Assembly (NCBI RefSeq): GCF_014334135.1
Contig: NZ_CP060497.1
Coordinates: 2,356,001-2,420,000 of the forward strand
DNA from: Olivibacter sp. SDN3
GTDB taxonomy: Bacteria; Bacteroidota; Bacteroidia; Sphingobacteriales; Sphingobacteriaceae
Length of the DNA: 64,000 nt
Direction: 5' to 3'
A model generated the notes under the pieces. It was not told where the DNA came from. It did not search any database and was given only the letters and a program-made list of their open reading frames with translations. This document shows, piece after piece, positions 46,432-64,000 of the stretch; within the stretch, counting starts at the first letter, position 1; every line of letters begins with the position of its first letter. The position numbers and the translations under genes were made by a program.

Positions 46432-46475
46432 GATTTATTTTAAACCTATCGTTTCAATATAAGGCAAAAAAATTA

Positions 46476-47048: not shown

Positions 47049-47349
47049 ACATTACAAATGTATATATTAAACCTAACGTTTCAAAATAATTATCAGAAAC
47101 TATTGTAATAGTTATAGATCTAAAGCCCTTCGATTTTCAAATGATAACTACATCACGTACTCACAAACCATACTTTGTCATTTGTTATTTTTTGTTGTCA
47201 TTGCTCGAAATTGATGATACAAAATTGGGCTTTACCGTCCGGTCTTATGTAACCAATACCTAGTCTGTTGTAGTTAAATCTCTCATGATATCGATTGTAA
47301 CGGCATAAACCCGAGCTGGTCGGGTATCAGATATTGGCGGGGTTCTTAA
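47049..47349. other. Intergenic stretch upstream of the TetR operon
   Basis: About 300 A/T-rich bases. It must contain the TetR promoter near 47060-47100 (sequence ATGTATATATTAAACC close to the start), but no clear operator dyad was found. No gene is supported. Confidence 0.35.
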
Positions 47350-47622
47350 TTATTGTTTATTAACCCGATAAAGAAATAATACCCTTTCGGTTTGCCTGGA
47401 GGGATAGTTTTCAAGAAACAGCCCGGCATACTCCGGCACCCGGTATTTTGTCCACACGTTGCTGTACATGGTACCTGCGCGGTCCAGATACAGCGTTGCC
47501 GTATCCGTTTGCCGGCCGGGACAAAATTTACCCGCTAATAATAATATACAGCAGCAGATCACCTTAATAGTCTTTTTAACGGCGTTGTCCGTCATCTGAT
47601 ATCTTAATTTGTTGACGTTCAT
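47350..47622 (-). pseudogene. N-terminal stub of an exported glycosidase-like gene after GH92
   Basis: From the ATG at 47622, which overlaps the GH92 stop (TAATG), the frame reads MNVNKLRYQMTDNAVKKTIK, a membrane signal (VICCCILLLAGKFCPG) and then YLDRAGTMYSNVWTKYRVPE and LFLENYPSRQTE, stopping after 90 codons. The last part looks like the start of a helical-barrel glycosidase such as GH76, which often accompanies GH92. Most of the gene is missing. The coupling to GH92 shows it was an operon partner. Confidence 0.45.
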
Positions 47623-49985: not shown

Positions 49986-50278
49986 GGAATTGATCTTTAA
50001 GGTTCTTGCTTAAATTTTGCTATTAATGCATAAATCTCCACCATACAGTTCTGGTTGATGATCCATACCCCCCTTCCGGGATTATTTCCGCTCCAGTCTT
50101 CCAAATCGCCCAGAGACGTGATAAGTACAGCATCCAGTGTTTCCTGTTCAGGTTGAAATGGAAGACGCTTTCGTTTCGGGCAATAACCTGTAGACCACAA
50201 CAAGCGCTGCCAGGCAGAAAAATGCAAATACTCAGATGGCAAACATGCCACACCATGGTTCCCATTATAAAGAGATAA
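49986..50278. other. Upstream region of GH92 with a possible remnant
   Basis: A minus-strand frame contains LDAVLITSLGDLEDWSGNNP and EIYALIAKFKQEP, which might be a scrap of coding sequence, but there is no family match. The GH92 promoter must lie near 50000-50080. No clear element was found. Confidence 0.25.
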
Positions 50279-50491
50279 TCATAAGACCCAATTTACGTCC
50301 ATATAGACAATTTTATTGTTAATAATGGCATTTACCAGCGTATCAAAACCTCTATGGATATTGTTTGAGCCAAGACTATGAGAAGGGCTGATTTCATAAG
50401 TATTATTTTCTATATAGGCCGTATCTTGAACAGTTTCGTAGTTTTCCGTACTTGACATATGGCGCTTACTGTAAGAATCAGTCGTACTCAT
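50279..50491 (-). CDS. Small hypothetical protein
   Basis: A 70-aa polar protein from the ATG at 50491, rich in Asn, Ser and Thr (TENYETVQDTAYIENNTYEI). It has no signal peptide, membrane segment or known motif. A 22-bp palindrome lies 39 bp upstream of its start. It could be a genuine small regulated protein or a chance frame. Confidence 0.3.
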   Translation of the reverse strand: MSTTDSYSKRHMSSTENYETVQDTAYIENNTYEISPSHSLGSNNIHRGFDTLVNAIINNKIVYMDVNWVL

Positions 50492-50529
50492 TTAATGATT
50501 ATCTAAGTTTATAAATACAAATACAAACA

Positions 50530-50551
50530 TATATATGTATATACATATATA
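50530..50551. repeat. Perfect 22-bp A/T palindrome
   Basis: TATATATGTAT followed by ATACATATATA is fully self-complementary. It sits upstream of the small gene at 50279-50491 and looks like an operator or a DNA-unwinding element. Confidence 0.5.
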
Positions 50552-51093
50552 CAAATATTTTCCTGAATTTATTGCTGTTTCGAGATAGATACAAATAAAA
50601 AGATATATTAATGTCTCATTAACAAATTATTGATACGAAAATTACAATGAAAAACATGTACATACATTTAGATAAAGAAGTTCTTTCACCACATTATATT
50701 GAAAAGGACCAATAGGTCTAATATATTTTTTAGTGCTTTAAATATAGATTTCGCGTAAGTTGGTTTTTCGACAATTTTGGTAGAAATAACAGCCAAATAA
50801 TTGTTCGTTGCTTCTCCATCTTTAAGTCCGCTAGCTTAGGCAGTCATTCATTTTAACCCACTGATGTTGCGTTTTCCGATATGCTTGTTTTAGAACGGCA
50901 TATCCTGCATTGCTAGAGGCTCCGAACATAGTAATCCTTTTTAGTGCATCCTCCATATATTTATCCGATATTTTTTCATAGTCGTTTTTATAGAGGCCGC
51001 CGAAATTGAAGAAAATGGAGTATATTAGCCTAGAACAAAGACAGTATTTTGGAACCACAGACTGTCAGATCAAGTAGTGGCTATTACATCTTA
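50552..51093. other. Intergenic stretch before the RarD-like transporter
   Basis: About 540 A/T-rich bases. A 75-codon minus-strand frame (50831-51058) overlaps the transporter leader and has no family resemblance. Nothing else is supported. Confidence 0.35.
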
Positions 51094-52005
51094 ATGAAAT
51101 ATTATCTATCTGCCGTATTGGGCTTTGCTATTTGGGGTACTTTTGCATTGGTATTAAAGCCTTTAAGTGCTTATGCCGCTCTGGATATTCTTATCCATCG
51201 TGTAATCTTTGCCGCGATCAGCATCGTTTTAGCCTGTTTTATTTTCAGAAGGAAACAAACCTCTGCCAGTATCCATTATCTCAGAACAACGTCGAGGAAA
51301 GAAAGGATGAACTTGATGGTGAACATACTCTTTAGCGCCGTTATGCTCGCATTGAATTGGTTCCTGTTTATTTACGTGATGAATGCGGTCAGTGTCAATG
51401 CCACTTCTTTGGCCTATCTGATCTGTCCCATCGTAGCCACGGTTCTGGCAAGCCTTTTCTTACATGAAAAACTGAATAAAGGGCAATGGTTTGCAGTATT
51501 GTTAAGCTTGGTTAGTTGCATCATCCTAGCGTACGGCCATTTTATGGACCTGGTTTACAGCATGGTGATTGCTGTTTCGTATGCAATTTACATAGTGCTC
51601 CAGAAGAATACGTTTAAGATGGATAAATTTTTCACATTGACCATCCACGTCGTCGTAAGCACCATCCTGTTGCTCCCAATATTAACGGTTATTGATACCG
51701 CTGTTCCGAAAACAATAACGTTCTATAGCTTTGTTGCGATCATTGCTGTGGGTTACACCATTATTCCACTGTTCCTCAATATTTTTGCCTTAAAAGGATT
51801 GGATTCTTCCGTTGTCGGCACCTTGCTATACTTAAATCCCATTATCAGTTTCTTATTGGCAGTTCTTTATTATAAAGAGCCCGTCAATACGGTACAGATC
51901 ATCGCCTTTGGAATGATTTTTACGGCTGTCGTGATTTTCAACCTCGCCTATCTGTATAGAAGGAAAAGCAATACCACGTTAAAGTACGCTGAAAATAAGC
52001 TTTGA
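51094..52005 (+). CDS. EamA/RarD-type transporter
   Basis: A 303-aa protein from the ATG at 51094 (MKYYLSAVLGFAIWGTFALV). The in-frame ATG at 51049 adds 15 polar residues and is less likely. About ten membrane helices form two EamA repeats: the first includes LDILIHRVIFAAISIVLACF and NWFLFIYVMNAVSVNATSLA, the second VGTLLYLNPIISFLLAVLYY. The family exports metabolites and drugs; the RarD-like subset was linked to chloramphenicol sensitivity. No partner gene is adjacent. Confidence 0.9.
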   Translation: MKYYLSAVLGFAIWGTFALVLKPLSAYAALDILIHRVIFAAISIVLACFIFRRKQTSASIHYLRTTSRKERMNLMVNILFSAVMLALNWFLFIYVMNAVSVNATSLAYLICPIVATVLASLFLHEKLNKGQWFAVLLSLVSCIILAYGHFMDLVYSMVIAVSYAIYIVLQKNTFKMDKFFTLTIHVVVSTILLLPILTVIDTAVPKTITFYSFVAIIAVGYTIIPLFLNIFALKGLDSSVVGTLLYLNPIISFLLAVLYYKEPVNTVQIIAFGMIFTAVVIFNLAYLYRRKSNTTLKYAENKL

Positions 52006-52222
52006 GTAACAGGCACAGCAATGGGTAATCCGCTATATATCCTCTCATAGGGGGGCGTTCATTCCAATACGCTTCATTTCGCTCTCGAAGCAGAAAATGA
52101 AGCAAATGAACCGATAGGCGGTCTGTTAAAAGTTTACCTTATGAAACTTATTGCCCTGAAAAATGTTATGTTCTTGATTACAAGAAAGCGGTATAGAAAG
52201 GAACATTCACGTAGAACATAAG
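52006..52222. other. Short gap with a possible remnant
   Basis: A startless frame from about 52079 reads FALEAENEANEPIGGLLKVY and runs to about 52221. It has no recognisable family and may be a scrap of a lost gene. Confidence 0.25.
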
Positions 52223-52450
52223 ATGAAGAAAAATCATTATTTAACAAGTAAGATTAGGAGCGCAGCTGTTGGACAGGCTGCTGCTGGTCGTCTGGCGGTT
52301 GGAGCATTAGCTGTTGGAGCGATGGCTGTTGGGGTTCTGGCAATAGGAGCGCTTACTGTCGGTGTACTACGAATCGGAAAAGGCAAATTCGGAAAGCTGC
52401 ACATCAATGAGCTGGAAGTCGACCGGTTGATAGTGAAAGATCAGATATAA
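52223..52450 (+). CDS. Small protein built of five-residue repeats
   Basis: A 75-aa protein. After residue 13 it is built almost wholly of 5-residue units of the form xVGxL: AVGQA, AAGRL, AVGAL, AVGAM, AVGVL, AIGAL, TVGVL, RIGKG, KFGKL, HINEL, EVDRL. The period and the Leu at the fifth position resemble pentapeptide-repeat right-handed beta helices, but with Gly in the third place. The last units are charged. No signal peptide is visible. The role is unknown; similar short proteins occur scattered in bacteria. Confidence 0.65.
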   Translation: MKKNHYLTSKIRSAAVGQAAAGRLAVGALAVGAMAVGVLAIGALTVGVLRIGKGKFGKLHINELEVDRLIVKDQI

Positions 52451-52570
52451 CCGCCATGATATGGCAGTAGAAATGCTTGAAAAAGGCTAGAAAATCAGTC
52501 TTGTTTTTTTTAAGATTTCCTTCTAGTCTGCATTTAAAGGGCATACAAAATATTGGCAAGCGTATTATGA

Positions 52571-52705
52571 TTTTTGAAGAAGGCGGGATGGCGTTTTAAA
52601 ACCAAACAGGTTGTTTATTCGCCAGAAGATACCGATAGTTATGTAGGATATGCGTTATGTTTTCATTCAGATTTCATCCGGAACTACCCTTTAGGAAACG
52701 CCTGA
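52571..52705 (+). pseudogene. Sensor-half fragment of an AraC-family regulator
   Basis: A 44-codon startless frame reads VVYSPEDTDSYVGYALCFHS then DFIRNYPLGNA and stops at 52703-52705. It parallels the sensor half of the AraC protein at 30014-30910 (the GHGLVFHPDLIKGTPLAKS segment), where this stretch leads into the helical linker. The DNA-binding half is absent. It is the counterpart of the DNA-binding-only remnant at 27714, though not necessarily from the same gene. Confidence 0.5.
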
Positions 52706-52893
52706 CCATTCTTCCACTCGACAAACATAGGGGGTACGCTAAATAATAAGCAAAGAAATGGATGAAGTTGAAATATATTAGTTTAATACGGCCATTGCCC
52801 AATCATCCGGTAGAGGGCGGGTATAATAATAGTAGCTTAAAAAGGAGTTGCTGTTCCTTAACTTTACAATATCAATTCCCGGAATGCTGAATG

Positions 52894-53520
52894 TCAGGTT
52901 TTTTTCAGTTTTTTTCTCTGGTAGTATCGTTTTGACTTCTCTAGACTTCCACACGCCTGCATATCACACCATTTTCTCCGATGATTTTTAGTCTCATCAA
53001 TAAACAGCCACTCGCATGCCCTACATTTTTTAATGTATTGTTGGTCTCTGTTAACCAGCAAATCGTGTGCTGACAATAAAAATGCCCACAATGGTTGCCA
53101 AAGGTCTACCCTGTCTTTTTTCCAATCCCTTTTTAGCTGAGACCCTTCGATAAAAAAAGATTGATTTGAATATGCTCGCGAAATATATCCGTTAAATGCT
53201 TTAAGAATCTCCTGATTAAGCTTATCCAGCATGCCTGTTGCGAGAGCGGTAAATACCTTGAAAAATACCTGTCTCACTTCACGTGCCACGGTTAAGACCC
53301 GTTCGCCTTCTTCAATATGGGTTGTAGAAAGTATTCTCAAGGCCCCTATTTTTTCCTTATCTAACAGCGATAACCTTTCAGAAAGCGTAAGTAGATCGCT
53401 GTAATCGCGCAGTCTTTCCACTATCGTGTCCTTTTCAGTGTCAAAACCGGAGTTAACGAAATCGAGACAGGCTATTCCTCCGTCAAGAGGCATGTTCTCT
53501 ATAGTCTTTGCTGTTGGCAT
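52894..53520 (-). CDS. CGNR zinc-finger (ABATE-domain) regulator
   Basis: A 208-aa protein. The N-terminal ABATE domain starts at LDGGIACLDFVNSGFD (residues 12-27). The C-terminal zinc finger reads CRACEWLFIDETKNHRRKWC then CGSLEKSKRYY, where the family normally has CGNR; here it is CGSL. The protein is a probable stress or antibiotic-responsive DNA-binding regulator. The promoter element only 4 bp upstream implies a nearly leaderless transcript, or a start at Met10 (53493). It is divergent from an EamA transporter, its likely target. Confidence 0.85.
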   Translation of the reverse strand: MPTAKTIENMPLDGGIACLDFVNSGFDTEKDTIVERLRDYSDLLTLSERLSLLDKEKIGALRILSTTHIEEGERVLTVAREVRQVFFKVFTALATGMLDKLNQEILKAFNGYISRAYSNQSFFIEGSQLKRDWKKDRVDLWQPLWAFLLSAHDLLVNRDQQYIKKCRACEWLFIDETKNHRRKWCDMQACGSLEKSKRYYQRKKLKKT

Positions 53521-53524
53521 AGGA

Positions 53525-53575
53525 TAAACTTAGATAATTTTCATTTTATATGCAATTTAATCGCGTTGTATATAA
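53525..53575 (-). promoter_or_regulatory. Recurring promoter element, copy B
   Basis: Read on the minus strand: TATATAC-like block (53575-53568), 12 bp, TTGCATATAAA, then TAAGTTTA (53532-53525) with 20 bp between TTG and the -7 box. It drives the CGNR gene and shares its architecture with copies at 22719 and 38231. Confidence 0.65.
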
Positions 53576-53723
53576 AATCATATTTGTCGATCTCTCCTCT
53601 GCTATTGAGAGCTTATTTTATAGAGGAAATATACGAAAAAACATAACCGGCTAAACCGGTTTTAAAGGTTGTTATCTTTTATAATTTTACTACCTTTAAA
53701 ATAAATTTTAACAGTAATAAACT

Positions 53724-54671
53724 ATGGTCAACAAAAAAGGTTACAATCGCATTACCATGATCTTGGCGTTCATAGCCATTTATTTTGTTTGGGGGACGAC
53801 GTATCTCGCCAATTTATTTGGCCTTGAAAGTATGGAGCCATTTGTACTTTCTTCTTTGAGGTATCTCGTCGCTGGTTTATTATTGCTTACCTGGGTAATT
53901 GGCAAAAGGCTTATCTGGCCTGATCTATATGGGATAAAAGTCTTGTCTGTAAGCGGAGTCCTTATGCTGGTCGGTGGCTCTGGGCTGGTAGTGTTTGCCG
54001 AACAATATATTAATTCAGGTTATGCTGCAGTAGTCGTGGCGTCAGAGCCATTTTGGTTCGTGTTGTTGGATAAAAAACACTGGAAATTCTATTTTAACAA
54101 CCGCAACATACTTGTGGGGCTTTTCTCGGGTTTTTCCGGCATTGTTTTGTTCTCCTATTTTTCGCCGGAATCCGGAATTGCCGGAACTGCTGATAAATTG
54201 GTCGGAACCACTATTTTACTGGTCAGTGCCGTTTTATGGGTAGTGGGAACGTTATACGCAAATAAAAGAATGAGAACTGGAACCTCTAATATAACGAATT
54301 CTGCAATACAACTATTGGCGGCCGGTACATTTTCGGCGTTGATTGCTTTTTGCCTTGGCGAATGGAACCGTTTTACAGTCCATGATATAAGCCTGAAGGC
54401 CTGGTCCGGATTGATCTTCTTGATATTTATGGGTTCAATGGTGGCATATATGGCTTTTACCTGGTTGGTTACCATACAGCCGCCCGCGGTCGTGAGCACG
54501 CATACTTATGTCAACCCGATGGTCGCCGTTTTTATTGGATGGTTGATAGCTGATGAACGGATCGTTCCCCATCAGATCTATGCCTTCGTGCTGGTTTTAG
54601 GAGGCGTTCTGCTTACGCAGATAGAAAGGAAAATTAGTTTGAATCCAAATCAGATTAAAGAAATCACGTAG
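53724..54671 (+). CDS. EamA-family (DMT) transporter
   Basis: A 315-aa protein with about ten membrane helices and two EamA repeats. The first has YFVWGTTYLANLFGLESMEP and LRYLVAGLLLLTW, the second contains GSMVAYMAFTWLVTIQPPAV followed by THTYVNPMVAVFIGWLIADE, the usual end signature. It is divergent from the CGNR regulator with 203 bp between starts, a recurring regulator-exporter arrangement. It probably exports an amino-acid-like or drug-like compound. Confidence 0.92.
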   Translation: MVNKKGYNRITMILAFIAIYFVWGTTYLANLFGLESMEPFVLSSLRYLVAGLLLLTWVIGKRLIWPDLYGIKVLSVSGVLMLVGGSGLVVFAEQYINSGYAAVVVASEPFWFVLLDKKHWKFYFNNRNILVGLFSGFSGIVLFSYFSPESGIAGTADKLVGTTILLVSAVLWVVGTLYANKRMRTGTSNITNSAIQLLAAGTFSALIAFCLGEWNRFTVHDISLKAWSGLIFLIFMGSMVAYMAFTWLVTIQPPAVVSTHTYVNPMVAVFIGWLIADERIVPHQIYAFVLVLGGVLLTQIERKISLNPNQIKEIT

Positions 54672-54735
54672 ATAAAAATTCCTTTGCCAACTTGCGGTCA
54701 ATTAAAATATACAGCCTTCAGGAAATAGCTCCATA

Positions 54736-55104
54736 TTACCTTTTGCTCCTCATACTACTCATCCCGGAGAGATAGGCTGCGGGATAAACTCCTGCAAGTA
54801 GCCCTACCCTAATAGCTGAAAGTAGAATAGCTGGAAACAGCCATACGCTTGTCCATGGAAATACCAGTTGCTTGCCAGCGAGCGGGTTGAAAAACGGCAG
54901 GAGCAGCCAAGCCATCAATACGCCGAGCACGATAGACAGTAAACTGTACAGCATGGATTCGGCAGGGAATTGCATCATCAAACTACGGCGGTAGGAGCCA
55001 AGGACTTTACGCAACTCCACTTCCCTGGCACGGCTGGCTGATTTGACGGTAGATAGGTTGATGAAATTTATGCAAGCAATCAACAGGATAAACCCGGCGT
55101 GCAT
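54736..55104 (-). pseudogene. Internal fragment of an FtsX-type ABC permease
   Basis: A 122-aa frame holds only the first FtsX domain of a permease: GFILLIACINFINLSTVKSA, EVELRKVLGSYRRSLMMQF and three membrane segments, ending YPAAYLSGMSSMRSKR. It aligns with about residues 285-415 of the complete permease at 247-2607. Everything before (the MacB-like domain) and after (the second FtsX domain) is missing. The coding similarity continues upstream right to the stop of the TlpA gene, so a recombination joined the two. Confidence 0.75.
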
Positions 55105-55121
55105 CCAAAAGGCGGTGCTGA

Positions 55122-56252
55122 TTAATCTGCCGCGGTGATGGTATCTAGTTTTTGGTTCAGCTCCTCTCCGCGTAAATTTCTTCCGATAATCCTTCCTTCC
55201 CGGTCGAGTAGAAAATTATCTGGCACCGATGTAACAAGTAGTTTTTTTGCAATAGCACTATTCCATAGATTCTGCAATTCCGAAACATGTGTCCAAGGCA
55301 ACCCATCTTCTCTGATTGCGTTTATCCAGTCCTCCTGTTTCTGATCAAACGAAACCGCTAGAATCTCGAAGCCTTTCGATTTATACTCATTATAACTTTT
55401 AACAAGATTCGGGTTTTCGCGTCTACATGGCGTACACCAGCTGGCCCAGAATTCTACCAGTACGTACTTGCCCTTATAGTTGGAAAGACTGACGCTGTTA
55501 CCTGCCGTGTCAGCCAAAGAGAAATCCTCTAACTGCTCCCCCAATTGCACTGATAGTTGTTTCCTGAGAAGCTCTTGTAAAACTTGGCCCTTCTTTGTTG
55601 CCTTGACTTCAGGCGTTAGCTTATTATATAAGCGCTCCCCACGTGCATAAAACGAAGGGTCGTTTCGTATATAACCGTGCAGTAAGCTTGCTGCAAAAAA
55701 TGTATTCGGATGCGTATCAATAAATTGAATATTCATTTCATCACGTTCTCTCGCCAATGAGTCGTATACGCGGCGATCCTCTTCGGTATAAGCGTTCGAT
55801 CTGATTTTTTTGTCCAACGAAGCCAGTTGAGTACTGAGTGGCTCCGCTTTAAGGCGGAGTTCCTCACTTAATCGCTGCGTTTCCGAGTTCCGAACTATCT
55901 GTTTGTCAAAACCACGAAGGCCCTCAAAATAGATTTCTTTATCCGGCTCCACCCAAAAAGAATAGCACCGCCAGTTGCCCAGGTAGTTTTTATCATAGAT
56001 ATTGTCTATAGAAAGCGATATGGTCGTTGGTTCAGTGATGTATCCGCTCAAAATGAAATGCCCGTTTTCATCCAAATTAACGGTGTCATAAACCAGACTA
56101 TCGGGATTATAGCGGTAATCTACATAATAAGATGCGCCCGGAACAGTATCTATCGAACCTACCACCTTAAACGGTTTGGCATCTTGTGCCTTAGTGGTCT
56201 TAGGGTTGAAAAATAAGAGAAAAGCTGATAAGAGCAAAAGATATTTTATCAT
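55122..56252 (-). CDS. TlpA-like thiol-disulfide oxidoreductase with DUF4369 domain
   Basis: A 376-aa periplasmic protein. The signal peptide covers residues 1-22 (ending TKAQ), a DUF4369 beta domain about 28-125, a helical linker to about 230, and a thioredoxin domain to the end with the redox motif FWASWCTPCRREN. The cis-Pro loop is in LLVTSVPDNFLLDREG. It probably reduces cysteines of c-type cytochromes or envelope proteins. The C-terminus matches a scrap at 6114-6185, so at least two paralogues once existed. Confidence 0.93.
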   Translation of the reverse strand: MIKYLLLLSAFLLFFNPKTTKAQDAKPFKVVGSIDTVPGASYYVDYRYNPDSLVYDTVNLDENGHFILSGYITEPTTISLSIDNIYDKNYLGNWRCYSFWVEPDKEIYFEGLRGFDKQIVRNSETQRLSEELRLKAEPLSTQLASLDKKIRSNAYTEEDRRVYDSLARERDEMNIQFIDTHPNTFFAASLLHGYIRNDPSFYARGERLYNKLTPEVKATKKGQVLQELLRKQLSVQLGEQLEDFSLADTAGNSVSLSNYKGKYVLVEFWASWCTPCRRENPNLVKSYNEYKSKGFEILAVSFDQKQEDWINAIREDGLPWTHVSELQNLWNSAIAKKLLVTSVPDNFLLDREGRIIGRNLRGEELNQKLDTITAAD

Positions 56253-56608
56253 GGCTTTGTCGTTTAGAGCATCTTGTTAGATAGTCATGCCTATCGACAA
56301 GAGAATAACCGGGGTTTATACATATCGATGAGCAAACTCAGTCAGGCGGAGAATCTCCTGTGCATGATTTGCAAACCGAATCACAATTGTCAGTCAATGC
56401 TAATATAATAAAATCGGGATATCGTGTCAAGCTCATCAAGCATTTATTCACCTTTGATTTAGTAAAATCAAATTATCGAAGATCACCTTTTTTCTTAGTA
56501 TTAAAATTCCTCCATTTTATAATCAAAAATTACACAGAAATTCCTATCTTACTCTAGTAAATGATCTAAACAAAAGCTTATAACACTTTAGGATCGAACC
56601 ATCTTGTA
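56253..56608. other. Intergenic stretch before the zeta-toxin-like gene
   Basis: About 350 A/T-rich bases with only unsupported short frames. No operator, repeat or RNA gene was recognised. Confidence 0.35.
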
Positions 56609-57187
56609 ATGCCAAATTTATATATAATAGCAGGTTGTAATGGTGCTGGCAAAACAACAGCTAGCTACACCGTTTTACCCGAAATCTTGAATTGTAAAGA
56701 ATTCGTAAATGCCGATATAATTGCGGCTGGGATATCTCCCTTTAATGTAGAGAGTGTTGCTTTGGAAGCAGGTAGAATTATGCTTAATCGAATTAATGAG
56801 CTAATTGAAGAACGAGTCGATTTTGCATTTGAGACAACCCTGGCTACCCGTAGTTATGTTTCATTGATTCGCAATGCGAGAGACAGAGGTTTTAATGTCA
56901 TTTTACTTTTTTTCTGGCTGGACTCTCCAGAACAAGCCCAAAAACGTGTAGCAAAAAGAGTTGCAAGCGGGGGACATCACATTCCTGATGATATAGTAGC
57001 TAGACGATACAAGAGGGGTGTTGTCAATTTATTTGAATTGTATATACCCATATGCGATGAATGGATGGTTTTTGTTAATATGGATGTAAGCCCTGAATTG
57101 ATTGCAAAGTCTGATTCACTTGGAAAAGAAATTTATAATACCGAACTTTGGGAAAGGATAGAAAGACAAGGCCATGATAAATATTGA
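56609..57187 (+). CDS. Zeta-toxin-family P-loop kinase
   Basis: A 192-aa P-loop NTPase. Walker A is AGCNGAGKTTASY (about residues 8-20). NADIIAAGISPFNVESVALE contains the substrate-binding Asp region, FAFETTLATRSYV is the zeta/AAA_33 signature, and KRVAKRVASGGHHIPDDIVA holds the lid Arg and His. Zeta toxins phosphorylate UDP-sugars; related kinases of this short form may act on other small molecules. Its last 14 bases overlap a 63-aa gene, so the two are translationally coupled and resemble a toxin-antitoxin pair with reversed order. Confidence 0.82.
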   Translation: MPNLYIIAGCNGAGKTTASYTVLPEILNCKEFVNADIIAAGISPFNVESVALEAGRIMLNRINELIEERVDFAFETTLATRSYVSLIRNARDRGFNVILLFFWLDSPEQAQKRVAKRVASGGHHIPDDIVARRYKRGVVNLFELYIPICDEWMVFVNMDVSPELIAKSDSLGKEIYNTELWERIERQGHDKY

Positions 57188-57365
57188 TTCAGCCTCAAAG
57201 GAATCGCCATTAAGTGCTCGTGTTCTCTTAGGACTTCGAAAGGCTATGCGTAAATTGGTAGAGGAAACTGCAGCGACAGGGGGCAGTCTTGTTGTGAAGA
57301 AGGATGGTGTAATCAAAGAAGTGCCTGCCAAAGAATTGCTCGGAACGTTGCCTAAAGAAGAATAA
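57174..57365 (+). CDS. Small partner of the zeta-toxin-like kinase
   Basis: A 63-aa, positively and negatively charged protein (RVLLGLRKAMRKLVEETAAT, then SLVVKKDGVIKEVPAKELL). It begins inside the kinase gene by 14 nt in another frame. It has no helix-turn-helix. The conserved coupling suggests an antitoxin or regulatory subunit, but it does not resemble the classic epsilon antitoxin. Confidence 0.6.
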   Translation: MINIDSASKESPLSARVLLGLRKAMRKLVEETAATGGSLVVKKDGVIKEVPAKELLGTLPKEE

Positions 57366-57409
57366 AACAATTAAAATTAATAGATACTTAACCCATTTTT
57401 TTAAAGCTG

Positions 57410-57637
57410 TTAATTTCTGATCAAAACAATCAATTTTTCTTTTTTTGCCATCGCCATTCTATCTATAATTACCATTGATCTTCTACCGCCTAGCGAAAAG
57501 GGTTTCTCTTCTTTAGATTTTTCGGGTCGATACCCGAATTTATAAAGCATAGTATAGGAGCTAATGTAAATTTCTACGCTGCTTTTTTCTAGAACAGGGA
57601 TATGACATATATTCAGCCATTCGAAGAAAACAAACAT
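57410..57637 (-). CDS. Hypothetical small protein
   Basis: A 75-aa frame from 57637. The C-terminal half is basic (YRPEKSKEEKPFSLGGRRSM and RMAMAKKEKLIVLIRN) and the N-terminal third hydrophobic. No family is recognised. It ends 45 bp from the kinase partner gene and lies just downstream of the PAP2 gene in the same direction. It may be a chance frame. Confidence 0.3.
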   Translation of the reverse strand: MFVFFEWLNICHIPVLEKSSVEIYISSYTMLYKFGYRPEKSKEEKPFSLGGRRSMVIIDRMAMAKKEKLIVLIRN

Positions 57638-57654
57638 TACGAGGGGCTCACCGT

Positions 57655-59067
57655 TTAGAAAAATGCTGTTAACTTTAAGCCTGCCGTTATGTAATTCATA
57701 TTATTCTTTTCCTTGAATGTTTGTACTGCCGAAGGTTCTGGGTCGGGATCCTCAAAATCTTCAGCTATGGTATAGGTAAAGATTGGCTTCAAATGATGGT
57801 AATCGGCATAGGCAGTAACTCCTAATTCAGTATTCAACATCCGTGTAAGAGCAAGCCCGCCATTCATCTTAAAAGCGCGCGCTGGCTTATAAGTTAGTAA
57901 GTCAACCTCATCATTAAGTATATTGTCATCATCGTCTTCGTATTTAAATGAAATTTTTCCCGTAGCGCCAGTAGCTATCCCTGCACCAAGTTTCGCTTGT
58001 ACGAGCCAATCGGAGGTGATTTCGTAGGTGTAATGTGGACCTATTGTGAAGTTCAAGACACCAACAGATTGTGTTACAATTGATGAGGATGAAGAACCAA
58101 TATCTGGATCTGAAAAAGTTGTCTCACTCGTACTTATCGGGAAACTTGCAAATGAGAAATCACCGCCCAAACCCCAACTCTTAGTAAAATAATAGGCGCC
58201 GTCTAAGCCAGCCTCAAAACCAGCTTTCGATCGAATTCCAATATCAAGGTTTTCAACCAGATTTCGAATAGAAGAGGCAAAACCAACTTTTAAAGATAGA
58301 TACGAAGGCTTATTTAGCGGGTTGTCAAAACGAAAATCACCTGGGCGATCACCCTGGTTCTTATAAAATTTGTTCACAAAAAAATAACCCAGTTGCGTAG
58401 ATAATATGCCAATACCAGCCCCTGCCAACACATCGGAAATCCAATGCCTATTGTTAAGCCCCCGTCCAATCCCCGTAAAGGTACTCATAGAGTATCCTGC
58501 GATACTATACATGGGGCTGATATGGCCAAATTCCCTGTGCATAAAAGTAGCGTTCATAAAAGCATTAGACGTATGTCCCGAAGGAAAAGAGTTTGCACGT
58601 GAGCCATCTGGCCTCTCTACTTTGGCGGTGTACTTAACTGAGTTTACAATAACAGCCATGATTGCGGCACTCGCAGCATAAGAGATGGTAGCACGCCCCA
58701 GCTTGTTACGACCTTCTACACCCGAAAGGTTTAAGGCGTAAACACTTGCTGCCGGCACATACTGCATGTAATCATCATAATGATGTGCGAAAGTAGGAAT
58801 GTACCGATTACGAACTTCTCTGATTTTCTCTCTACCGCTCCAAGTTGCTGCACTAGCCGCGAAGAAAATAGCCGGAGCGAGCCCAATTCTTACCGCGTCT
58901 TTTTCAAAGAAAGACTGTTTAACTCTTTTTAGTGTTAAACTGTCTTCACGTTGAAATAACGTACTTTTTTGGGATAAGGTTTGTGCCGTTAAATTAGCGT
59001 ATGTAACTAATAAATAGATAAAAACAGCTGTTAAGTTAAGAACTAAGTGTGTAAAGCTTGTTTTCAT
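57655..59067 (-). CDS. PAP2-family phosphatase fused to an outer-membrane-like beta barrel
   Basis: A 470-aa protein from the ATG at 59067 (MKTSFTHLVLNLTAVFIYLL). The signal peptide ends near residue 28. The PAP2 domain is at about residues 60-215 with all three motifs: KYTAKVERPDG, FPSGHTSNAF, and RGLNNRHWISDVLAGAGIG. From about 235 on, alternating strands (LSLKVGFASSIRNLVENLDI to YITAGLKLTAFF) end in Phe, as outer-membrane barrels do. It would dephosphorylate lipids such as undecaprenyl-PP or lipid A from an outer-membrane anchor. Confidence 0.85.
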   Translation of the reverse strand: MKTSFTHLVLNLTAVFIYLLVTYANLTAQTLSQKSTLFQREDSLTLKRVKQSFFEKDAVRIGLAPAIFFAASAATWSGREKIREVRNRYIPTFAHHYDDYMQYVPAASVYALNLSGVEGRNKLGRATISYAASAAIMAVIVNSVKYTAKVERPDGSRANSFPSGHTSNAFMNATFMHREFGHISPMYSIAGYSMSTFTGIGRGLNNRHWISDVLAGAGIGILSTQLGYFFVNKFYKNQGDRPGDFRFDNPLNKPSYLSLKVGFASSIRNLVENLDIGIRSKAGFEAGLDGAYYFTKSWGLGGDFSFASFPISTSETTFSDPDIGSSSSSIVTQSVGVLNFTIGPHYTYEITSDWLVQAKLGAGIATGATGKISFKYEDDDDNILNDEVDLLTYKPARAFKMNGGLALTRMLNTELGVTAYADYHHLKPIFTYTIAEDFEDPDPEPSAVQTFKEKNNMNYITAGLKLTAFF

Positions 59068-59220
59068 AATAGTGTTTTTAGCATTATATTTAAAGAGCGA
59101 TGAAAATAAACAGAAAAAACCTGAAGGTGTCAATGCTTCTGCGGCAGATAGCTATCAGGTAAAGTATACGTAATATAGTAGAACGTGTTTGTCGCGTCTA
59201 ATTGAATGTTAGTTATATGC

Positions 59221-60003
59221 TCATTTTGAAGGGTGCTTTAATGATAAAAAATAATTGTCGTACAATTCCCTGATGTTCTTTATATCGGTAAAGTCTGGTT
59301 TGATAATCCCCGCTGACGGGTTGTCAAGATCTTGTATTGTATAAAGAATAATATAGCTCATCACCGCAAAAATAATAGCCGAAATATGCATTTTGGTATG
59401 CAACATTCCACGCAGGAAGCCCAACAAAAAGCCAATAAGTAGAGAAAAAAGTATTAAAATAAAAAGAATTAGGGTAGGAGTGTTTCGATGATATGAATAG
59501 AGTAACCTGTAATAGATGTGTTCCATCTCTTCGAGCGCATTTATCAATTCAGAAACATTTTGTTTTTTTCCCGGATGCCTTGCAATATAATCTACTAAGA
59601 AGCGATCAAAGCTGTGGTCTAATGTTTCTATTTCTCTTACGGTTTCTCGCACTTCGGCGTTCGATCTCTGTACAGCGTTTAGCTGCATATCAAAAATACA
59701 GGACATGTAGTTGTAAAGTTCTACTTGTAATTCGTGATCGTATAACTTACTTTTCCGTAATATTAAGGCTAATTTATCCGCGGTATCATGGATATATCCG
59801 GTACGTTCTTTGGCGTTATTTCCAGCCTGTACCAATGAAAATGAAATCAATAATGAGTAGAATCCTACAAGTCCATTTTCGATCCCAAGTGGCGTCCATT
59901 TAGGTCTTGTTGGAAAAACATAATCAGCTACTTTCTTGCCGATACCTAAACTGGCAATTAACAATACAGGATAAACAATTATGTGAAAAATAAGGCCTAA
60001 CAT
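59221..60003 (-). CDS. Bestrophin-like (DUF4239) membrane protein
   Basis: A 260-aa protein with two N-terminal membrane helices (about residues 3-22 and 42-62) and two C-terminal ones (about 172-192 and 200-220), separated by a helical cytoplasmic domain. The motif GLVGFYSLLISFSLVQAGNN resembles the family's conserved second helix. The length is typical. It might be a channel-like protein, but no function is established. Confidence 0.7.
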   Translation of the reverse strand: MLGLIFHIIVYPVLLIASLGIGKKVADYVFPTRPKWTPLGIENGLVGFYSLLISFSLVQAGNNAKERTGYIHDTADKLALILRKSKLYDHELQVELYNYMSCIFDMQLNAVQRSNAEVRETVREIETLDHSFDRFLVDYIARHPGKKQNVSELINALEEMEHIYYRLLYSYHRNTPTLILFILILFSLLIGFLLGFLRGMLHTKMHISAIIFAVMSYIILYTIQDLDNPSAGIIKPDFTDIKNIRELYDNYFLSLKHPSK

Positions 60004-60078
60004 GGAATTGATAAGGTTATATCGAGATCAAGAGCATGGGCAGCCTGCTCATCCCGCTTGTATAGTAACGATAAATAA

Positions 60079-60675
60079 CTACTTAATCCTATATGCCAAC
60101 ACGAGATTAGCAATGCCTTTATAGCCATAACCAACGTTTAAAGAGATACTAAACGGATTTCCATAGCTAATGCCTATGGCATCCAGCTGATATGCAAAAT
60201 CGGTGGTTTTGTCCTTTTCAATAATTACATCGTCTTTTGTGGAACTCCGAGCGTGCGCAACACCGGCACCAATACCCGAATGCAATCTAAAGTTTTTATG
60301 ATTAATGTAATTATATTTGAGTTCAGCTAATACCGCATAAGTATTAGTAGATATGCTGCCCGCCTTAGTGGATTCCATCAAAAGATCTTTGCTGGAATTC
60401 TCATAAACAAAACTTCCACCAAACTCCAGTTTTTCAGTTACGTAAGCTCTATATCCTCCGAAAATTGCGCCTGTATATTTAGAATCAGCCACATTATACG
60501 CGCCTCCAGTAGCGGTTGTTATGATAATATCCGCAATGACGTCGTCTATTGAATTAGCTGTCGCAACTCCATATCCTAGATAGAAACTGGCACCATCTTG
60601 AGCAAAACCATTTCGCGTAATACAGGCAAATAAAAATAAGGTAGCTACAAATAATTTGATAGAAAAATTCTTCAT
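60079..60675 (-). CDS. Outer-membrane beta-barrel protein
   Basis: A 198-aa exported protein with a signal peptide (residues 1-25, ending GFAQ). It has eight or so alternating strands rich in Gly and aromatic residues (SFYLGYGVATANS, GAIFGGYRAYVTEKLEFGGS, FRLHSGIGAGVAHA and SLNVGYGYKGIANLVLAYRI), as in OmpW/OprF-like small barrels. No ligand can be inferred. The three envelope genes from 57655 to 60675 are co-directional and may be linked. Confidence 0.8.
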   Translation of the reverse strand: MKNFSIKLFVATLFLFACITRNGFAQDGASFYLGYGVATANSIDDVIADIIITTATGGAYNVADSKYTGAIFGGYRAYVTEKLEFGGSFVYENSSKDLLMESTKAGSISTNTYAVLAELKYNYINHKNFRLHSGIGAGVAHARSSTKDDVIIEKDKTTDFAYQLDAIGISYGNPFSISLNVGYGYKGIANLVLAYRIK

Positions 60676-61221
60676 AATAATTGGTTAATAATTGTTTTTA
60701 AGGGGTATTGTTTAAATTTATAATCAATAATATTTAAAATATAACTGATTTTCTTAAAAATTGTTTTGCTATTTCATGTTGTTTATTCTCATACACTTCT
60801 GTCTGAAAAACAAGTAGCACAACTATTATAGAAATTGCTCCAAAAATTACTCCTTTCACGCCAAAAGTACTGTGATCGGAAGTGCCTCACATATCATAAA
60901 CGTGATGGCCCTCACCTATATATGATGCTAGGCAACCAAAAACTCGGGTATAACCTAGGCTTTGCCAGCTAAAATAATAGAAGATTTCTCAAAGTATAAA
61001 TTTTTTACACGAATGGTCACCCTCCTTACACAGAAAATATTTTGCCGAAACAAACAGTAATAAAATCTGCCTATTGTTTCATATATATCCATCCTATGAA
61101 CTACATGTTTTCTTGTTGAACAATATTTTAATAGTTCTGCGGATACAGGTCTTTAAGATTTTTATGGTTTATGGATATGATGTTTTCCAATGTCTATTTC
61201 AACTACTGAAAAGGATTTATC
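60676..61221. other. Intergenic stretch without recognisable gene
   Basis: About 545 A/T-rich bases. The first part must hold the promoter of the beta-barrel gene. No intact or clearly decayed gene is visible. Confidence 0.35.
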
Positions 61222-61265
61222 GGAATTATAACAAAAAATGTCTTCCACTTTTTTGTTATAATTCC
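61222..61265. terminator. Perfect 17-bp inverted repeat downstream of an AraC gene
   Basis: GGAATTATAACAAAAAA (61222-61238) and TTTTTTGTTATAATTCC (61249-61265) are exact complements around a 10-base loop. It begins 42 nt beyond the stop of the AraC gene (61308). The A/T-rich stem with its own U-run suits a bidirectional terminator. Confidence 0.6.
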
Positions 61266-61307
61266 TTATTCGCTAAACCGATTATATGCAGACAGGTTTT
61301 CGCTTGG

Positions 61308-62315
61308 CTATTTATACTTGTGTCGGTATTCAGATGGCGTTTTTCCTGTCCATTTTTTAAATGCTCGAACAAACCCGCTTGGTTCCGCGTAACCCAAAAT
61401 TGACGAAATTTCTTTTATAGACGAAGTACTGTTTTGAATGTAATGAATCGCCAACGACTTTCGCACTTCTTCTACTATTTGAAGATAAGACACGCCCTCT
61501 TCTTTGAGTTTTCGTTGAAGTGTACGCACACTTAAGTTGAAATTTCCGGCTACGGATTCAATAGAAAGTGAGTATAGGTAAGAGTTTGCAATCAGAAAAT
61601 TAAAAATCTTTTTTGAAAAACCGCCATTTAACGATGTTGGATTTTGTAGTTTATTGATTTGTTCAATTAACAGATTTTGAATTTCATAATTGGCGGTTAT
61701 GATTTTTGTTTTCAGGTAGTCTTTTTTGAACTCTAAAGAATAGTTATCATTTTTCTTCGTTGAGCATTTTAAAATGTTTTGGTATTCTCTGTCGTAAATC
61801 TTTTTATAAGTTAACAGACTAGCTTTTATCGGTTTCGGATTTTCAAGTACCAACCCTTTTAATTCATATAGTGTAAAAGTAATCAAAAAATCACCCATTT
61901 GATTTCGAGCGGTAGGAAAGTTGTCAAATCCATCATTTTTTTGGAAAGTAATTGTAAATGTTTTTGTTTTTTCCTCAATCTGAATCGTGTAAAAGTCCGT
62001 AATCAAATGAACAAGTGAACACGCGTGTTGCAAAGCTTCTTTAACGGTATTGCTTGTTTGAATAATCTGACCAATTGTATTCAGGGCCGCAATTTGCATT
62101 GTCGCTCCAAAATGTAATCCTATCAGTTCATCGCCTGAAAGCTGAACAATGTTTTTCCATACATTCTCCAGTTGTTGATTGGTAAGGTTGAACTTTGTTT
62201 TGGTATTTAATTCACGAAGCGAAATGCCCGATAACGATGTTATTCTTTGAGGATCTATATTTCTTTCTCCGCAAAATAGCAGCAATGCCTGCAAAAAAGT
62301 TCGCCTGTAATTCAT
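61308..62315 (-). CDS. AraC-family regulator with arabinose-binding-type (PF12625-like) sensor
   Basis: A 335-aa protein from the ATG at 62315 (MNYRRTFLQALLLFCGERNI). The frame upstream to 62372 lacks coding character. Residues 1-200 form an OruR/ArgR-like sensor (NVWKNIVQLSGDELIGLHFG). The C-terminal helix-turn-helix is SIESVAGNFNLSVRTLQRKL and IKEISSILGYAEPSGFVRAF. It is divergent, with 130 bp between starts, from a two-gene unit of membrane and SnoaL-like proteins that it probably controls. Confidence 0.9.
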   Translation of the reverse strand: MNYRRTFLQALLLFCGERNIDPQRITSLSGISLRELNTKTKFNLTNQQLENVWKNIVQLSGDELIGLHFGATMQIAALNTIGQIIQTSNTVKEALQHACSLVHLITDFYTIQIEEKTKTFTITFQKNDGFDNFPTARNQMGDFLITFTLYELKGLVLENPKPIKASLLTYKKIYDREYQNILKCSTKKNDNYSLEFKKDYLKTKIITANYEIQNLLIEQINKLQNPTSLNGGFSKKIFNFLIANSYLYSLSIESVAGNFNLSVRTLQRKLKEEGVSYLQIVEEVRKSLAIHYIQNSTSSIKEISSILGYAEPSGFVRAFKKWTGKTPSEYRHKYK

Positions 62316-62445
62316 GGCGTAAAAGTACAGAAATGTTTTGTTGCCTTGCAATAGATTGACGTAAAATACCAATACAGTGTCGTATTAAGATAACAGTAAA
62401 AGGTCAACTTAAAGATAACTTTGTTGAAAATAAAAAGCTAAGGTT

Positions 62446-62814
62446 ATGACACTAAAAAAAGTTCTGCTGATAAATGCTATCAGCTCAGGAGTTACAGGAA
62501 TTCAGTTGGCACTAATGCCAAATTTTTTTGCAAACCTGTTTAAGGTGAGTTATGTCGTTCCATTTGTGGAAGTCGGGATTTTTCTGATATTATTTTCATT
62601 ATTTGTACTGGCAACTGCTTTTAAAAACCCTAATCAAAAAAGCTGGACGAAACTCATTATCGGAATGGATATAACCTGGGTAATTGCAAGTATTATTGCT
62701 GTCATCCTATTGTTTCAGTTGATCAGCATAGTTGGTTCTGTTATCATTCTTGCAGTTGCAGGTTGGGTAGGGTTAATGGCGTACTTGCAAAACAGAGGTT
62801 TACAAAATATTTAA
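62446..62814 (+). CDS. Four-helix membrane protein of unknown function
   Basis: A 122-aa protein with four membrane helices (about residues 5-27, 38-58, 68-90 and 92-112) and short basic loops (KNPNQKSWTKL). It is separated by only 3 nt from the SnoaL-like gene, so the two are one transcript under the divergent AraC regulator. I do not recognise the family. Confidence 0.7.
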   Translation: MTLKKVLLINAISSGVTGIQLALMPNFFANLFKVSYVVPFVEVGIFLILFSLFVLATAFKNPNQKSWTKLIIGMDITWVIASIIAVILLFQLISIVGSVIILAVAGWVGLMAYLQNRGLQNI

Positions 62815-62817
62815 GAT

Positions 62818-63216
62818 ATGGTCAGTCCAAAAATAATGGCAGATGTTTTCCTTAAACACCTTCAGGATAGAGATTTAGAGAGCCTTGTAAATTTGTTCTC
62901 TGATGAAATAGAATGGCAGATTCCCGGAAACACAGACGACATAAAATGGTTAGGAACAAGAAGTTCTAGGATTGAAGTGAAAGAATTTTTCGAATTACTT
63001 TGGTCAGCGACAGAACCTGTTTCTGCTGAAGTGTATAAAATTTTTATTGACAAATCTGACGTTGTTATTACGGGAGCATTTGTTACAAAAATGTTGGAAA
63101 CAAACAAAACTGTAAGTTCAATTTTCTTTATTCATTTTGTTGTGGAGGATAGTAGAATTGTCAAATACACATTGTTGGAAGATAGTTATGCTGTTTCAAA
63201 GTCTTTATTGAAATAA
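62818..63216 (+). CDS. SnoaL/NTF2-like protein
   Basis: A 132-aa NTF2-like protein with the family layout: helix FLKHLQDRDLESLVNLFSDE, then IEWQIPGNTDDIKWLGTRSS, FFELLWSATEP, and strands VVITGAFVTKMLETNKTVSS and IFFIHFVVEDSRIVKYTLLE. Such cones bind small hydrophobic ligands and can act as cyclases or isomerases. There is no signal peptide. It is the second gene of the AraC-controlled pair and is followed by a hairpin terminator. Confidence 0.88.
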   Translation: MVSPKIMADVFLKHLQDRDLESLVNLFSDEIEWQIPGNTDDIKWLGTRSSRIEVKEFFELLWSATEPVSAEVYKIFIDKSDVVITGAFVTKMLETNKTVSSIFFIHFVVEDSRIVKYTLLEDSYAVSKSLLK

Positions 63217-63312
63217 CTATTCCTGAAGGCATTATAACTGTCTTTTCTTTGCTTTAAAGAAGCTTCAATTGTGTAAATATCAAACGCGCTTCAGGGGTTG
63301 TTTTATCTATCA

Positions 63313-63350
63313 AGGCCCTTACCTATGCCAGGCGAAATAGCTAAGGGCCT
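63313..63350 (+). terminator. Hairpin terminator after the SnoaL-like gene
   Basis: AGGCCCTTA (63313-63321) and TAAGGGCCT (63342-63350) pair exactly, with an inner CTA/TAG pairing after one mismatch. T-rich sequence follows. It lies about 95 nt past the stop at 63216 and suits the end of the two-gene unit. Confidence 0.55.
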
Positions 63351-63450
63351 CTAGTTGTTCTTTTGTAAAGGGGAGAAAGATCTTATAATCCCCCTCAAAT
63401 TTCAATTCTTTACCTCATTAGCCTTCAGCCCTCGCAAAAGGCAACTTTAA

Positions 63451-64000
63451 TCATTCGCTCACCATGAATTTTTTTAATCCCTCGAATCCTTCGGTACCGT
63501 AATTGCTGTATAGGATTTCCCCCGTCCTGTCGATAATCATATATGTAGGAAAATTGGAAACGTTTAGACCTCTACTAATTGTACTTTTCCTAGCTTGCTG
63601 GTTGTCCAATAATTGAGGCCATGCTACCCCGTGTTCGGAAAAGATCTCTTTTGCCTTGTCAAAGTTTTCAGGCCGGTCGAAGCAAATGCTCAGAAAATCA
63701 TATTCCTCCTTTGAGGAACTGTACAACTCCTGTAAATGGGGGAGTGCTTCGATACAGGGAGCACACCAGGTCCCCCAGAAATCCAGCACCAGATATTCGT
63801 TATTTTCGGAAAAATAGGGTAGGAGCTTCGCCAGGTGAACGTCCGGTATATATGCTGCACCGGTTTCCACAACTGGATGCAGATACAAGTTTTCCATTCC
63901 CGTATCAAGACTGTCAAGTCGATAGGGCTTTCCTTCGATATTGACCGTGTCCTGTAAACGATAGGAATGTTTATATGCCAATCCTTCGTTAATTCTGTCT
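63451..64000 (-). CDS. TlpA-like thioredoxin-domain protein (cut by window edge)
   Basis: A thioredoxin-domain protein open to the window edge on its 5' side; at least 180 residues are visible. The frame continues upstream of the TTG at 63981 without a stop, so the true start lies outside. The redox motif is FWGTWCAPCIEAL and the cis-Pro loop SNFPTYMIIDRTG. It is probably a periplasmic thiol-disulfide reductase, perhaps with an N-terminal DUF4369 domain like the one at 55122. Confidence 0.85.
   Translation of the reverse strand, partial: DRINEGLAYKHSYRLQDTVNIEGKPYRLDSLDTGMENLYLHPVVETGAAYIPDVHLAKLLPYFSENNEYLVLDFWGTWCAPCIEALPHLQELYSSSKEEYDFLSICFDRPENFDKAKEIFSEHGVAWPQLLDNQQARKSTISRGLNVSNFPTYMIIDRTGEILYSNYGTEGFEGLKKFMVSE

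What the first reader, a model, noticed from the sequence alone, without database searches (positions are those of the whole stretch)
56609..57365. Zeta-toxin-like kinase overlapping a small, non-epsilon partner gene
The kinase has the P-loop and FETTLA signature. A 63-aa protein starts 14 nt before its stop. The order (kinase first) and the partner sequence differ from epsilon-zeta. It could be a distinct toxin-antitoxin or small-molecule kinase module.
Basis: partly seen in the sequence, partly recalled or inferred. Interest (0 to 1): 0.5.

Follow-up and report, generated by a model that had tools for sequence, protein, structure and literature searches.

The report
Kinase toxin with unnamed downstream antitoxin
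A small bacterial kinase of the zeta-toxin type is followed, with overlapping genes, by a tiny protein of no named family that nearly always travels with it; together they look like a widespread, little-noticed toxin-antitoxin pair whose toxicity has not yet been tested.

Summary
Window 56609-57187 encodes a 192-aa zeta-type P-loop kinase (Pfam Zeta_toxin, 40.5 bits, cut-off 22.3); 57174-57365 encodes a 63-aa protein overlapping its stop by 14 nt, without Pfam or NCBIfam match. The small gene is real: a profile built from other loci finds it behind the kinase in 24 of the 30 best Bacteroidota loci at E 1.3e-8 or better, in 5 more weakly, not in one; 77 of 80 named loci have it. It is under purifying selection, and in two related genomes it is fused to the kinase's C-terminus. 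The pair is patchy (2 of 5 genomes of the genus), lies elsewhere in the congener, and occurs on plasmids. Of 33 strong partner places in 395 genomes, 9 have a broken or missing kinase and 2 more a substituted K15 or D36. Best reading: a kinase-first toxin-antitoxin module. The kinase lacks the published UDP-GlcNAc motif, so its substrate is unknown; the partner is modelled as helix plus hairpin. The architecture has precedent in AvrRxo1-Arc1, the kinase in Rv0366c. Against: one intact kinase has no adjacent partner (its MAG holds another pair), one a frameshifted partner. Toxicity and neutralisation are untested. New variant of a known kind.

The parts
56609..57187 (+). zeta-type P-loop kinase, 192 aa, the presumed toxin
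   Evidence: ORF; Pfam PF06414 40.5 bits vs cut-off 22.3; AF2 model of a fused homologue matches AvrRxo1, PezT and zeta by fold
56633..56656 (+). Walker A / P-loop, residues 9-16 GCNGAGKT
   Evidence: sequence; G9, N11, G12, G14, K15, T17 invariant in the 20 kinases of A2; exceptions elsewhere: K15 is Q in L016
56714..56716 (+). codon for D36, position of the published catalytic Asp
   Evidence: invariant in A2; A in L014; same residue number as Asp36 of Rv0366c in PMC6362051; not aligned to it here
56828..56845 (+). FETTLA motif, residues 74-79
   Evidence: E75, T77, L78 invariant in the 20 kinases of A2; published GTXR UDP-GlcNAc motif absent (residues 76-79 read TTLA)
56945..57010 (+). RVxxRVxxGGH ... 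RRY block, residues 113-134, with R113, R117, H123, R132, R133
   Evidence: invariant columns
57174..57365 (+). 63-aa partner, the presumed antitoxin; helix, beta-hairpin, short helix
   Evidence: ORF; conserved downstream of the kinase; AF2 model mean pLDDT 84.5, H12-34 E38-43 E46-51 H52-55
57174..57187 (+). 14-nt overlap of the two genes
   Evidence: in 72 of 76 named loci measured the start chosen nearest the kinase stop overlaps the kinase gene by 1 nt or more (the choice of start leans towards the stop)

Best explanation
A two-gene, kinase-first toxin-antitoxin module. The 192-aa zeta-type kinase uses its P-loop (K15, T16) to hold ATP, D36 to activate a hydroxyl of a small nucleotide-like substrate and R117 for catalysis; free kinase depletes or poisons that substrate and stops growth. 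The 63-aa helix-hairpin protein is made from the same message by coupled translation across the overlap, binds the kinase and keeps it inactive. The module moves as a unit and persists partly because losing the partner alone is costly. Shown: the two genes, their overlap, co-conservation, purifying selection on the partner, conserved catalytic positions in the kinase, fusion in one lineage, the kinase fold family. Inferred: toxicity, direct inhibition, coupled translation, the nature of the substrate.
For: Kinase family, fold and catalytic positions. Published toxicity of Rv0366c, whose landmark residue numbers (9-16, D36, E75, R116, H122) nearly coincide with those here (PMC6362051). Partner behind the kinase in 24 of 30 loci strongly and 5 weakly, in 77 of 80 named loci (one locus is shared by the two sets), in 8 of 8 further loci of relatives. 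Natural fusion in two genomes, 68% identical, recognised by profile. Of 33 strong partner places in 395 genomes, 26 have a kinase match directly upstream: 24 open frames, of which L014 has A at D36 and L016 has Q at K15, and 2 with an in-frame stop (L017, L018); 7 have only remnants, a broken kinase or none. The partnerless open kinase L083 is in a MAG with a second complete pair, the kinases 161 of 188 identical. Patchy: 2 of 5 genomes of the genus, the congener's pair in a different neighbourhood; pairs on plasmids.
Against: No experiment. The kinase is about three times longer than the partner, so more kinase breakage is expected anyway: at 3:1, 9 of 9 has chance 0.075 and 9 or more of 10 has 0.24. 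L109 has an open kinase and a partner that reads as frameshifted; L026's downstream ORF is not recognised; L083 has no partner beside it. No DNA-binding family was found in the partner, which many type II antitoxins have. A small subunit that completes an enzyme would also be co-conserved and fused. I could not see in the model whether the partner covers the active site.
Confidence: 0.68

Rival explanations
1. The small protein is an obligate subunit or activator of a non-toxic small-molecule kinase, like a detached C-terminal domain, rather than an inhibitor.
For: It is fused C-terminally in L027 and L126 and the fused model is predicted with confidence as one unit (pTM 0.88, C-terminal blocks of residues 201-240 at pLDDT 94-96). 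VIA alignments to AvrRxo1, zeta and PezT span model residues 1 to 239-247, so part of it may stand where larger zeta kinases have their own C-terminal elements; ranges only, residues not seen.
Against: Partner retained where the kinase is broken, gone or substituted at K15 or D36 (11 of 33 strong places), which an activator would not explain; patchy distribution; toxicity of the nearest published relative (PMC6362051).
Confidence: 0.15
2. It is an ordinary epsilon-zeta / PezAT type system: a UDP-GlcNAc kinase with a diverged epsilon antitoxin.
For: Pfam Zeta_toxin match and fold matches to 1gvn and 2p5t.
Against: GTXR motif for UDP-GlcNAc absent; partner is downstream, helix plus hairpin in the model and has no Pfam match.
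Confidence: 0.07
3. The pair works mainly as a phage-defence or mobile-element-stabilising device, with the kinase released by infection.
For: Pairs on plasmids and relatives in 5 viral or proviral contigs, 3 with a separate partner; on pSYSG next to a restriction subunit.
Against: Only P-loop noise in PADLOC; no defence gene that I recognised by eye among the ORFs at 46000-64000. It is a use of a toxin-antitoxin pair, not an alternative mechanism.
Confidence: 0.08
4. The small ORF is a chance reading frame and the kinase works alone.
For: Short ORF, no database family.
Against: Conservation and purifying selection, fusion.
Confidence: 0.01

Closest known systems
Rv0366c-Rv0367c (PezAT-like, Mycobacterium), PMC6362051
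   Same: Short zeta-type kinase (197 aa) without the UDP-GlcNAc motif; published landmarks 9-16, D36, E75, R116, H122 nearly coincide with 9-16, D36, E75, R117, H123 here; overexpression is bacteriostatic and rescued by the partner (paper)
   Different: Its antitoxin is 129 aa, upstream, with a predicted ribbon-helix-helix domain; here the partner is 63 aa, downstream, helix plus hairpin. The sequence was not fetched or aligned here.
AvrRxo1-Arc1, PMC4938570 (passages)
   Same: Zeta-superfamily kinase first, small antitoxin second; top Foldseek match of the fused homologue's model (4z8q_A, E 1.2e-8); the paper reports arc1 kept intact where avrRxo1 is a pseudogene
   Different: AvrRxo1 is 421 aa and also a secreted effector; Arc1 is 98 aa. 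No relation between Arc1 and the partner appeared here, which is not proof of none.
epsilon-zeta and PezAT
   Same: Kinase fold, P-loop, catalytic Asp and Arg
   Different: Antitoxin upstream and of another kind; zeta has an N-terminal helical region (as described in PMC6362051) and the GTXR motif, both absent here
sll8004 / ssl8003 of plasmid pSYSG, Synechocystis (PMC4963859, passages)
   Same: The annotated pSYSG pair at L112 1465-2001 and 1998-2177 has the same layout and the partner profile recognises it (i-Evalue 5.2e-5); the paper lists sll8004 and ssl8003 among TA-related genes that failed its strict criteria
   Different: Not characterised there in the passages seen; that these tags are this very pair is my inference
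EzeT (E. coli), as described in PMC4963859 (passage)
   Same: Zeta kinase and antitoxin fused in one chain
   Different: Its antitoxin domain is N-terminal; here the fused partner is C-terminal

Membership tests
epsilon-zeta / PezAT | zeta-type P-loop kinase | tested here: met
   PF06414 above cut-off; Foldseek 2p5t_B E 1.4e-7, 1gvn_B E 2.7e-7 for the fused homologue's model
epsilon-zeta / PezAT | GTXR motif that binds UDP-GlcNAc after the conserved Glu | tested here: not met
   E75 is followed by T76 T77 L78 A79; motif definition from PMC6362051; register rests on the paper's equivalence of zeta E116 with Rv0366c E75
epsilon-zeta / PezAT | epsilon or PezA antitoxin encoded upstream | tested here: not met
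   partner is downstream; 25 partner sequences scanned against Pfam gave at best E 0.0072 (Phd_YefM, 1 of 25) and 0.013 (DUF150_C, 2 of 25), no epsilon or PezA family among the 17 listed; an upstream 65-aa ORF has no relatives in related loci
AvrRxo1-Arc1 | kinase gene first, small antitoxin gene second | tested here: met
AvrRxo1-Arc1 | partner homologous to Arc1 | tested here: inconclusive
   not listed in the profile search of PDB sequences at E up to 10 nor among the 50 Foldseek matches shown; no direct comparison made
AvrRxo1-Arc1 | long kinase of about 420 aa with a secretion-linked N-terminal part | tested here: not met
   192 aa, P-loop at residue 9; AvrRxo1 length from PMC4938570
Rv0366c-type PezT | short kinase with P-loop 9-16, D36, E75, R116, H122, no GTXR | tested here: met
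   positions 9-16, D36, E75, R117, H123 here against the numbers printed in PMC6362051; no alignment to Rv0366c was made, so this is a match of numbers
Rv0366c-Rv0367c | upstream RHH / ParD-like antitoxin | tested here: not met
   the nearest long gene upstream is thioredoxin-like (named by eye) on the other strand; the one short + strand ORF close upstream has no relatives in related loci
type II toxin-antitoxin module | two small, adjacent, co-conserved genes | tested here: met
type II toxin-antitoxin module | patchy distribution and movement as a unit | tested here: met
   2 of 5 genus genomes; congener's pair in another neighbourhood, and a Trx orthologue without the pair in G413
type II toxin-antitoxin module | toxicity neutralised by the partner through binding | not testable with these tools
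   needs expression and binding experiments

The most novel reading that the evidence does not exclude
A widespread, unnamed class of toxin-antitoxin module: a zeta-like kinase lineage that pairs with a downstream helix-hairpin protein of a new family where its relatives have other, upstream partners, spread across Bacteroidota and cyanobacterial plasmids, with the partner at times fused to the kinase, and with a cellular substrate that is not UDP-GlcNAc.
Probability: 0.5. Interest if true: 0.55.

Novelty: new variant of a known kind. Interest (0 to 1): 0.43.

Why it matters
If true, a gene annotated as 'zeta toxin family protein' has a cognate antitoxin that annotation leaves as 'hypothetical protein'. 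This gives a defined, testable two-gene module for Bacteroidota and cyanobacterial plasmids, a case where one kinase scaffold is paired with unlike small proteins on either side of the gene, and a way into the open question of what non-UDP-GlcNAc zeta kinases phosphorylate.

Tried and rejected
Rejected: chance ORF. Rejected as a filing: epsilon-zeta (motif and antitoxin not met). PADLOC gave only P-loop noise (E 0.024 and 0.037); PHROGs gave E 0.031 and 0.044 for the kinase. Sequence searches of the PDB gave no useful relative of the window kinase (best E 0.61, SNAP25), weak ones with the kinase profile (best E 0.0015; PezT 0.65) and none convincing for the partner (best E 1.3 alone, 0.067 with the profile). 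The partner's model has no Foldseek match at E 0.001 or better and a best VIA Z of 3.5, to prefoldin; this does not show a new fold. Scattered weak Pfam hits of 25 partners were not pursued. Phage records: 3 of 50,697, none covering 80% of the kinase (68-73%). The fused model's coordinates are not readable, so the interface was not seen. An alignment of the fusion with separate small proteins misplaced them and was not used. The second fusion-like pair, L122 and L124 in viral contigs, is suggestive only: i-Evalues 0.068 and 0.0074 with an extended model searched against four sequences, 0.2 and 0.25 with the plain one; the tree counts them as fusions on my label. In that tree of 68 chosen kinases the split of downstream-partner from upstream-partner kinases has support 86/92, not starred, with long branches; the labels D of L158, L160, L174, L179 and L026 rest on weak or no profile support. 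The substrate could not be named: fold neighbours include AvrRxo1 (phosphorylates NAD, by PMC6362051), polynucleotide kinases and zeta. A promoter pattern search failed on its syntax and was not repeated. Literature: 'COG4185' (a label recalled, from no call) occurs in 0 papers; searches listed no paper that I recognised as characterising this pair, in this open-access library and judged from listings, not all hits being shown.

Full report
What is there. The window carries two overlapping genes on the + strand: a 192-aa kinase at 56609-57187 and a 63-aa protein at 57174-57365. The kinase passes Pfam's Zeta_toxin cut-off. The small protein matches no family in Pfam, NCBIfam, PADLOC or PHROGs at the thresholds used. 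The nearest long ORFs on either side are on the other strand (thioredoxin-like and PAP2-like, named by eye). A 65-aa + strand ORF just upstream (56360-56557) has no relative in 124 related loci.

Is the small gene real? Of 395 genomes of the phylum, 78 have a kinase match at E 1e-5 or better. I read the 30 best loci (30 of the matches listed). Each has an ORF over or just after the kinase stop, or, in L027, a C-terminal extension. With a profile from 37 partner sequences not among these 30, 24 of 30 score at or below 1.3e-8, five (L027-L031) between 0.0012 and 0.028, and L026 is not recognised. Of the 80 named loci kept from the species-level collection (408 candidates confirmed, best 80 kept), 77 have the partner at E 1.6e-4 or better within 110 nt before to 400 nt after the kinase stop; that profile was built from the first set, and one locus, L105 = L013, is in both sets. 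The three others: L076 ends at the contig edge, L083 has none, L109 has a partner that seems frameshifted behind an open kinase frame. In 72 of 76 measured loci the chosen start overlaps the kinase; starts were chosen nearest the stop, which leans that way. Eight further loci from the window's closer relatives all have the partner (8 of 8). Twenty loci of lower kinase rank gave a profile hit behind the kinase in 16, several weak (i-Evalue up to 0.03); the 4 without are distant kinases of 28-30% identity. Selection: 99 pairs of partner genes at 60-99.5% amino-acid identity have median pN/pS 0.26; choosing by amino-acid identity favours low values.

Fusion. L027 (257 aa) joins kinase and partner in one frame. 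A second genome, G395, has a 68% identical fusion (2 of 21 genomes of that family), and the partner profile recognises both C-termini. So the fusion is not a sequencing slip. Two viral-contig kinases, L122 and L124, end in a similar stretch, but profile support is weak. If they count, the tree needs two origins of fusion.

Decay. Searching 395 genomes of the phylum with the partner profile gave 62 places, 33 of them at E 3.8e-9 or better, in 32 genomes. The 29 weaker ones mix true partners (such as the fusion in G055) with likely noise inside long frames and are left out. Of the 33, 26 have a kinase match right upstream: 24 open frames and 2 with one in-frame stop (L017, L018). Two of the 24 open frames are substituted at key residues, L014 (A at D36) and L016 (Q at K15). 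Seven have no intact kinase: L151, L152, L153 broken, L148 and L149 remnants, L147 and L150 none found in about 1.1 kb upstream. Three kinase fragments without partner were also seen (L154, L155, L156). In 118 loci (L002-L111, L181-L188) thirteen landmark residues are kept except in six: L014, L016, L017, L018, L049 (K at R132) and L184. Each of the 28 loci without an in-frame stop has an overlapping ORF or fusion. L083, an open kinase without a partner, lies in a MAG that has a second, complete pair, the kinases 161 of 188 identical; binning error cannot be excluded. This is what is expected if the kinase harms cells without the partner. But the kinase is three times longer, and at 3:1 the excess of broken kinases is not significant (0.075 for 9 of 9, 0.24 for 9 or more of 10).

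Mobility. In the genus, 2 of 5 genomes have the kinase; 16 of 60 genomes searched as relatives, the window's own included, have it at E 1e-20 or better. In the congener G415 the pair (74% and 60% identical) sits among other genes, and G413 has the thioredoxin gene (70%) without the pair. Of 72,556 plasmid records 535 have a related kinase; I opened eight. Three (pSYSG, Parabacteroides, Nostoc) have the small gene downstream with 4-8 nt overlap and a profile hit (5.2e-5, 1.7e-22, 6.4e-13); five (Agrobacterium, Lactobacillus, Vibrio, Paenibacillus, Rhizobium) have another ORF upstream and no profile hit downstream; the Paenibacillus upstream ORF itself hits weakly (0.061).

Structure and mechanism. 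AF2 of the fusion: mean pLDDT 90.7, pTM 0.88; kinase plus helix 201-220 and strands 223-245. Two of its 26 alignment rows were kinase plus partner read through a stop. Its best Foldseek matches are AvrRxo1 (E 1.2e-8), PezT, zeta and a polynucleotide kinase; VIA Z 13.2-13.8 for these. AF2 of the window's partner: mean pLDDT 84.5, a helix and a hairpin. G9, G14, K15, D36, E75, T77, R113, R117, G121, G122, H123, R132, R133 are invariant in the 20 kinases of A2, which did not include L014, L016, L017 or L018. PMC6362051 (abstract, two of three parts of the results and one later section read) describes Rv0366c with landmark residues at nearly the same numbers, lacking the UDP-GlcNAc motif, bacteriostatic, with K15, D36 and R116 needed. 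I did not fetch or align it. PMC4938570 (passages) gives the kinase-first precedent and the retained arc1. PMC6504116 (passages) notes that the cluster holding Rv0366c pairs mostly with ParD-like antitoxins. PMC4963859 (passages) lists sll8004 and ssl8003 as TA-related but below its criteria. In PMC2701414 the words zeta and PezT were not found. PMC5923241 (passages) describes zeta subfamilies with other sugar specificity.

Verdict. Most likely a kinase-first toxin-antitoxin module with an unnamed antitoxin family (0.68). The chief rival is an enzyme with an obligate small subunit (0.15). The architecture and the kinase type are known; the pairing and the partner family were not found described in my searches. 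Hence a new variant of a known kind.

Noticed in passing
L083:1780-2343 and L203 (reverse strand 932-1677): One Prevotella MAG holds a kinase copy without partner and, on another contig, a close copy with partner.
   Followed up: partly
L204:300-1487 (G000:C1:5710800-5713200): The window's own genome has a second, distant zeta-like kinase (33% identity) with an in-frame TAA, behind a 162-aa ORF.
   Followed up: no
L112:1182-2177 (pSYSG of Synechocystis): A nucleotidyltransferase-family gene overlaps the start of the zeta kinase, next to a restriction subunit S gene: a run of overlapping genes.
   Followed up: no
L114:1297-1488, L115:1313-1495, L117:1302-1499, L119:1296-1469: Distant zeta kinases on plasmids are preceded by short unannotated genes of 57-65 aa; the one in L117 hits the partner profile weakly (0.061). 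Possible further antitoxin kinds or a moved partner.
   Followed up: partly
L158 and L160 (reverse strand): Kinases of a divergent branch are followed by small proteins with a shared hairpin pattern (P-[LN]-V-Y-S-x-x-G-[KQ]-I) and an added ELPDG stretch.
   Followed up: no
L109:3500-3750: Bacteroides rodentium draft: open kinase frame, partner split over two frames; sequencing error or real loss not decided.
   Followed up: partly
L014 and L016: Kinases with an open frame but A at the D36 position and Q at the K15 position, both with the partner kept: likely inactive natural variants.
   Followed up: partly
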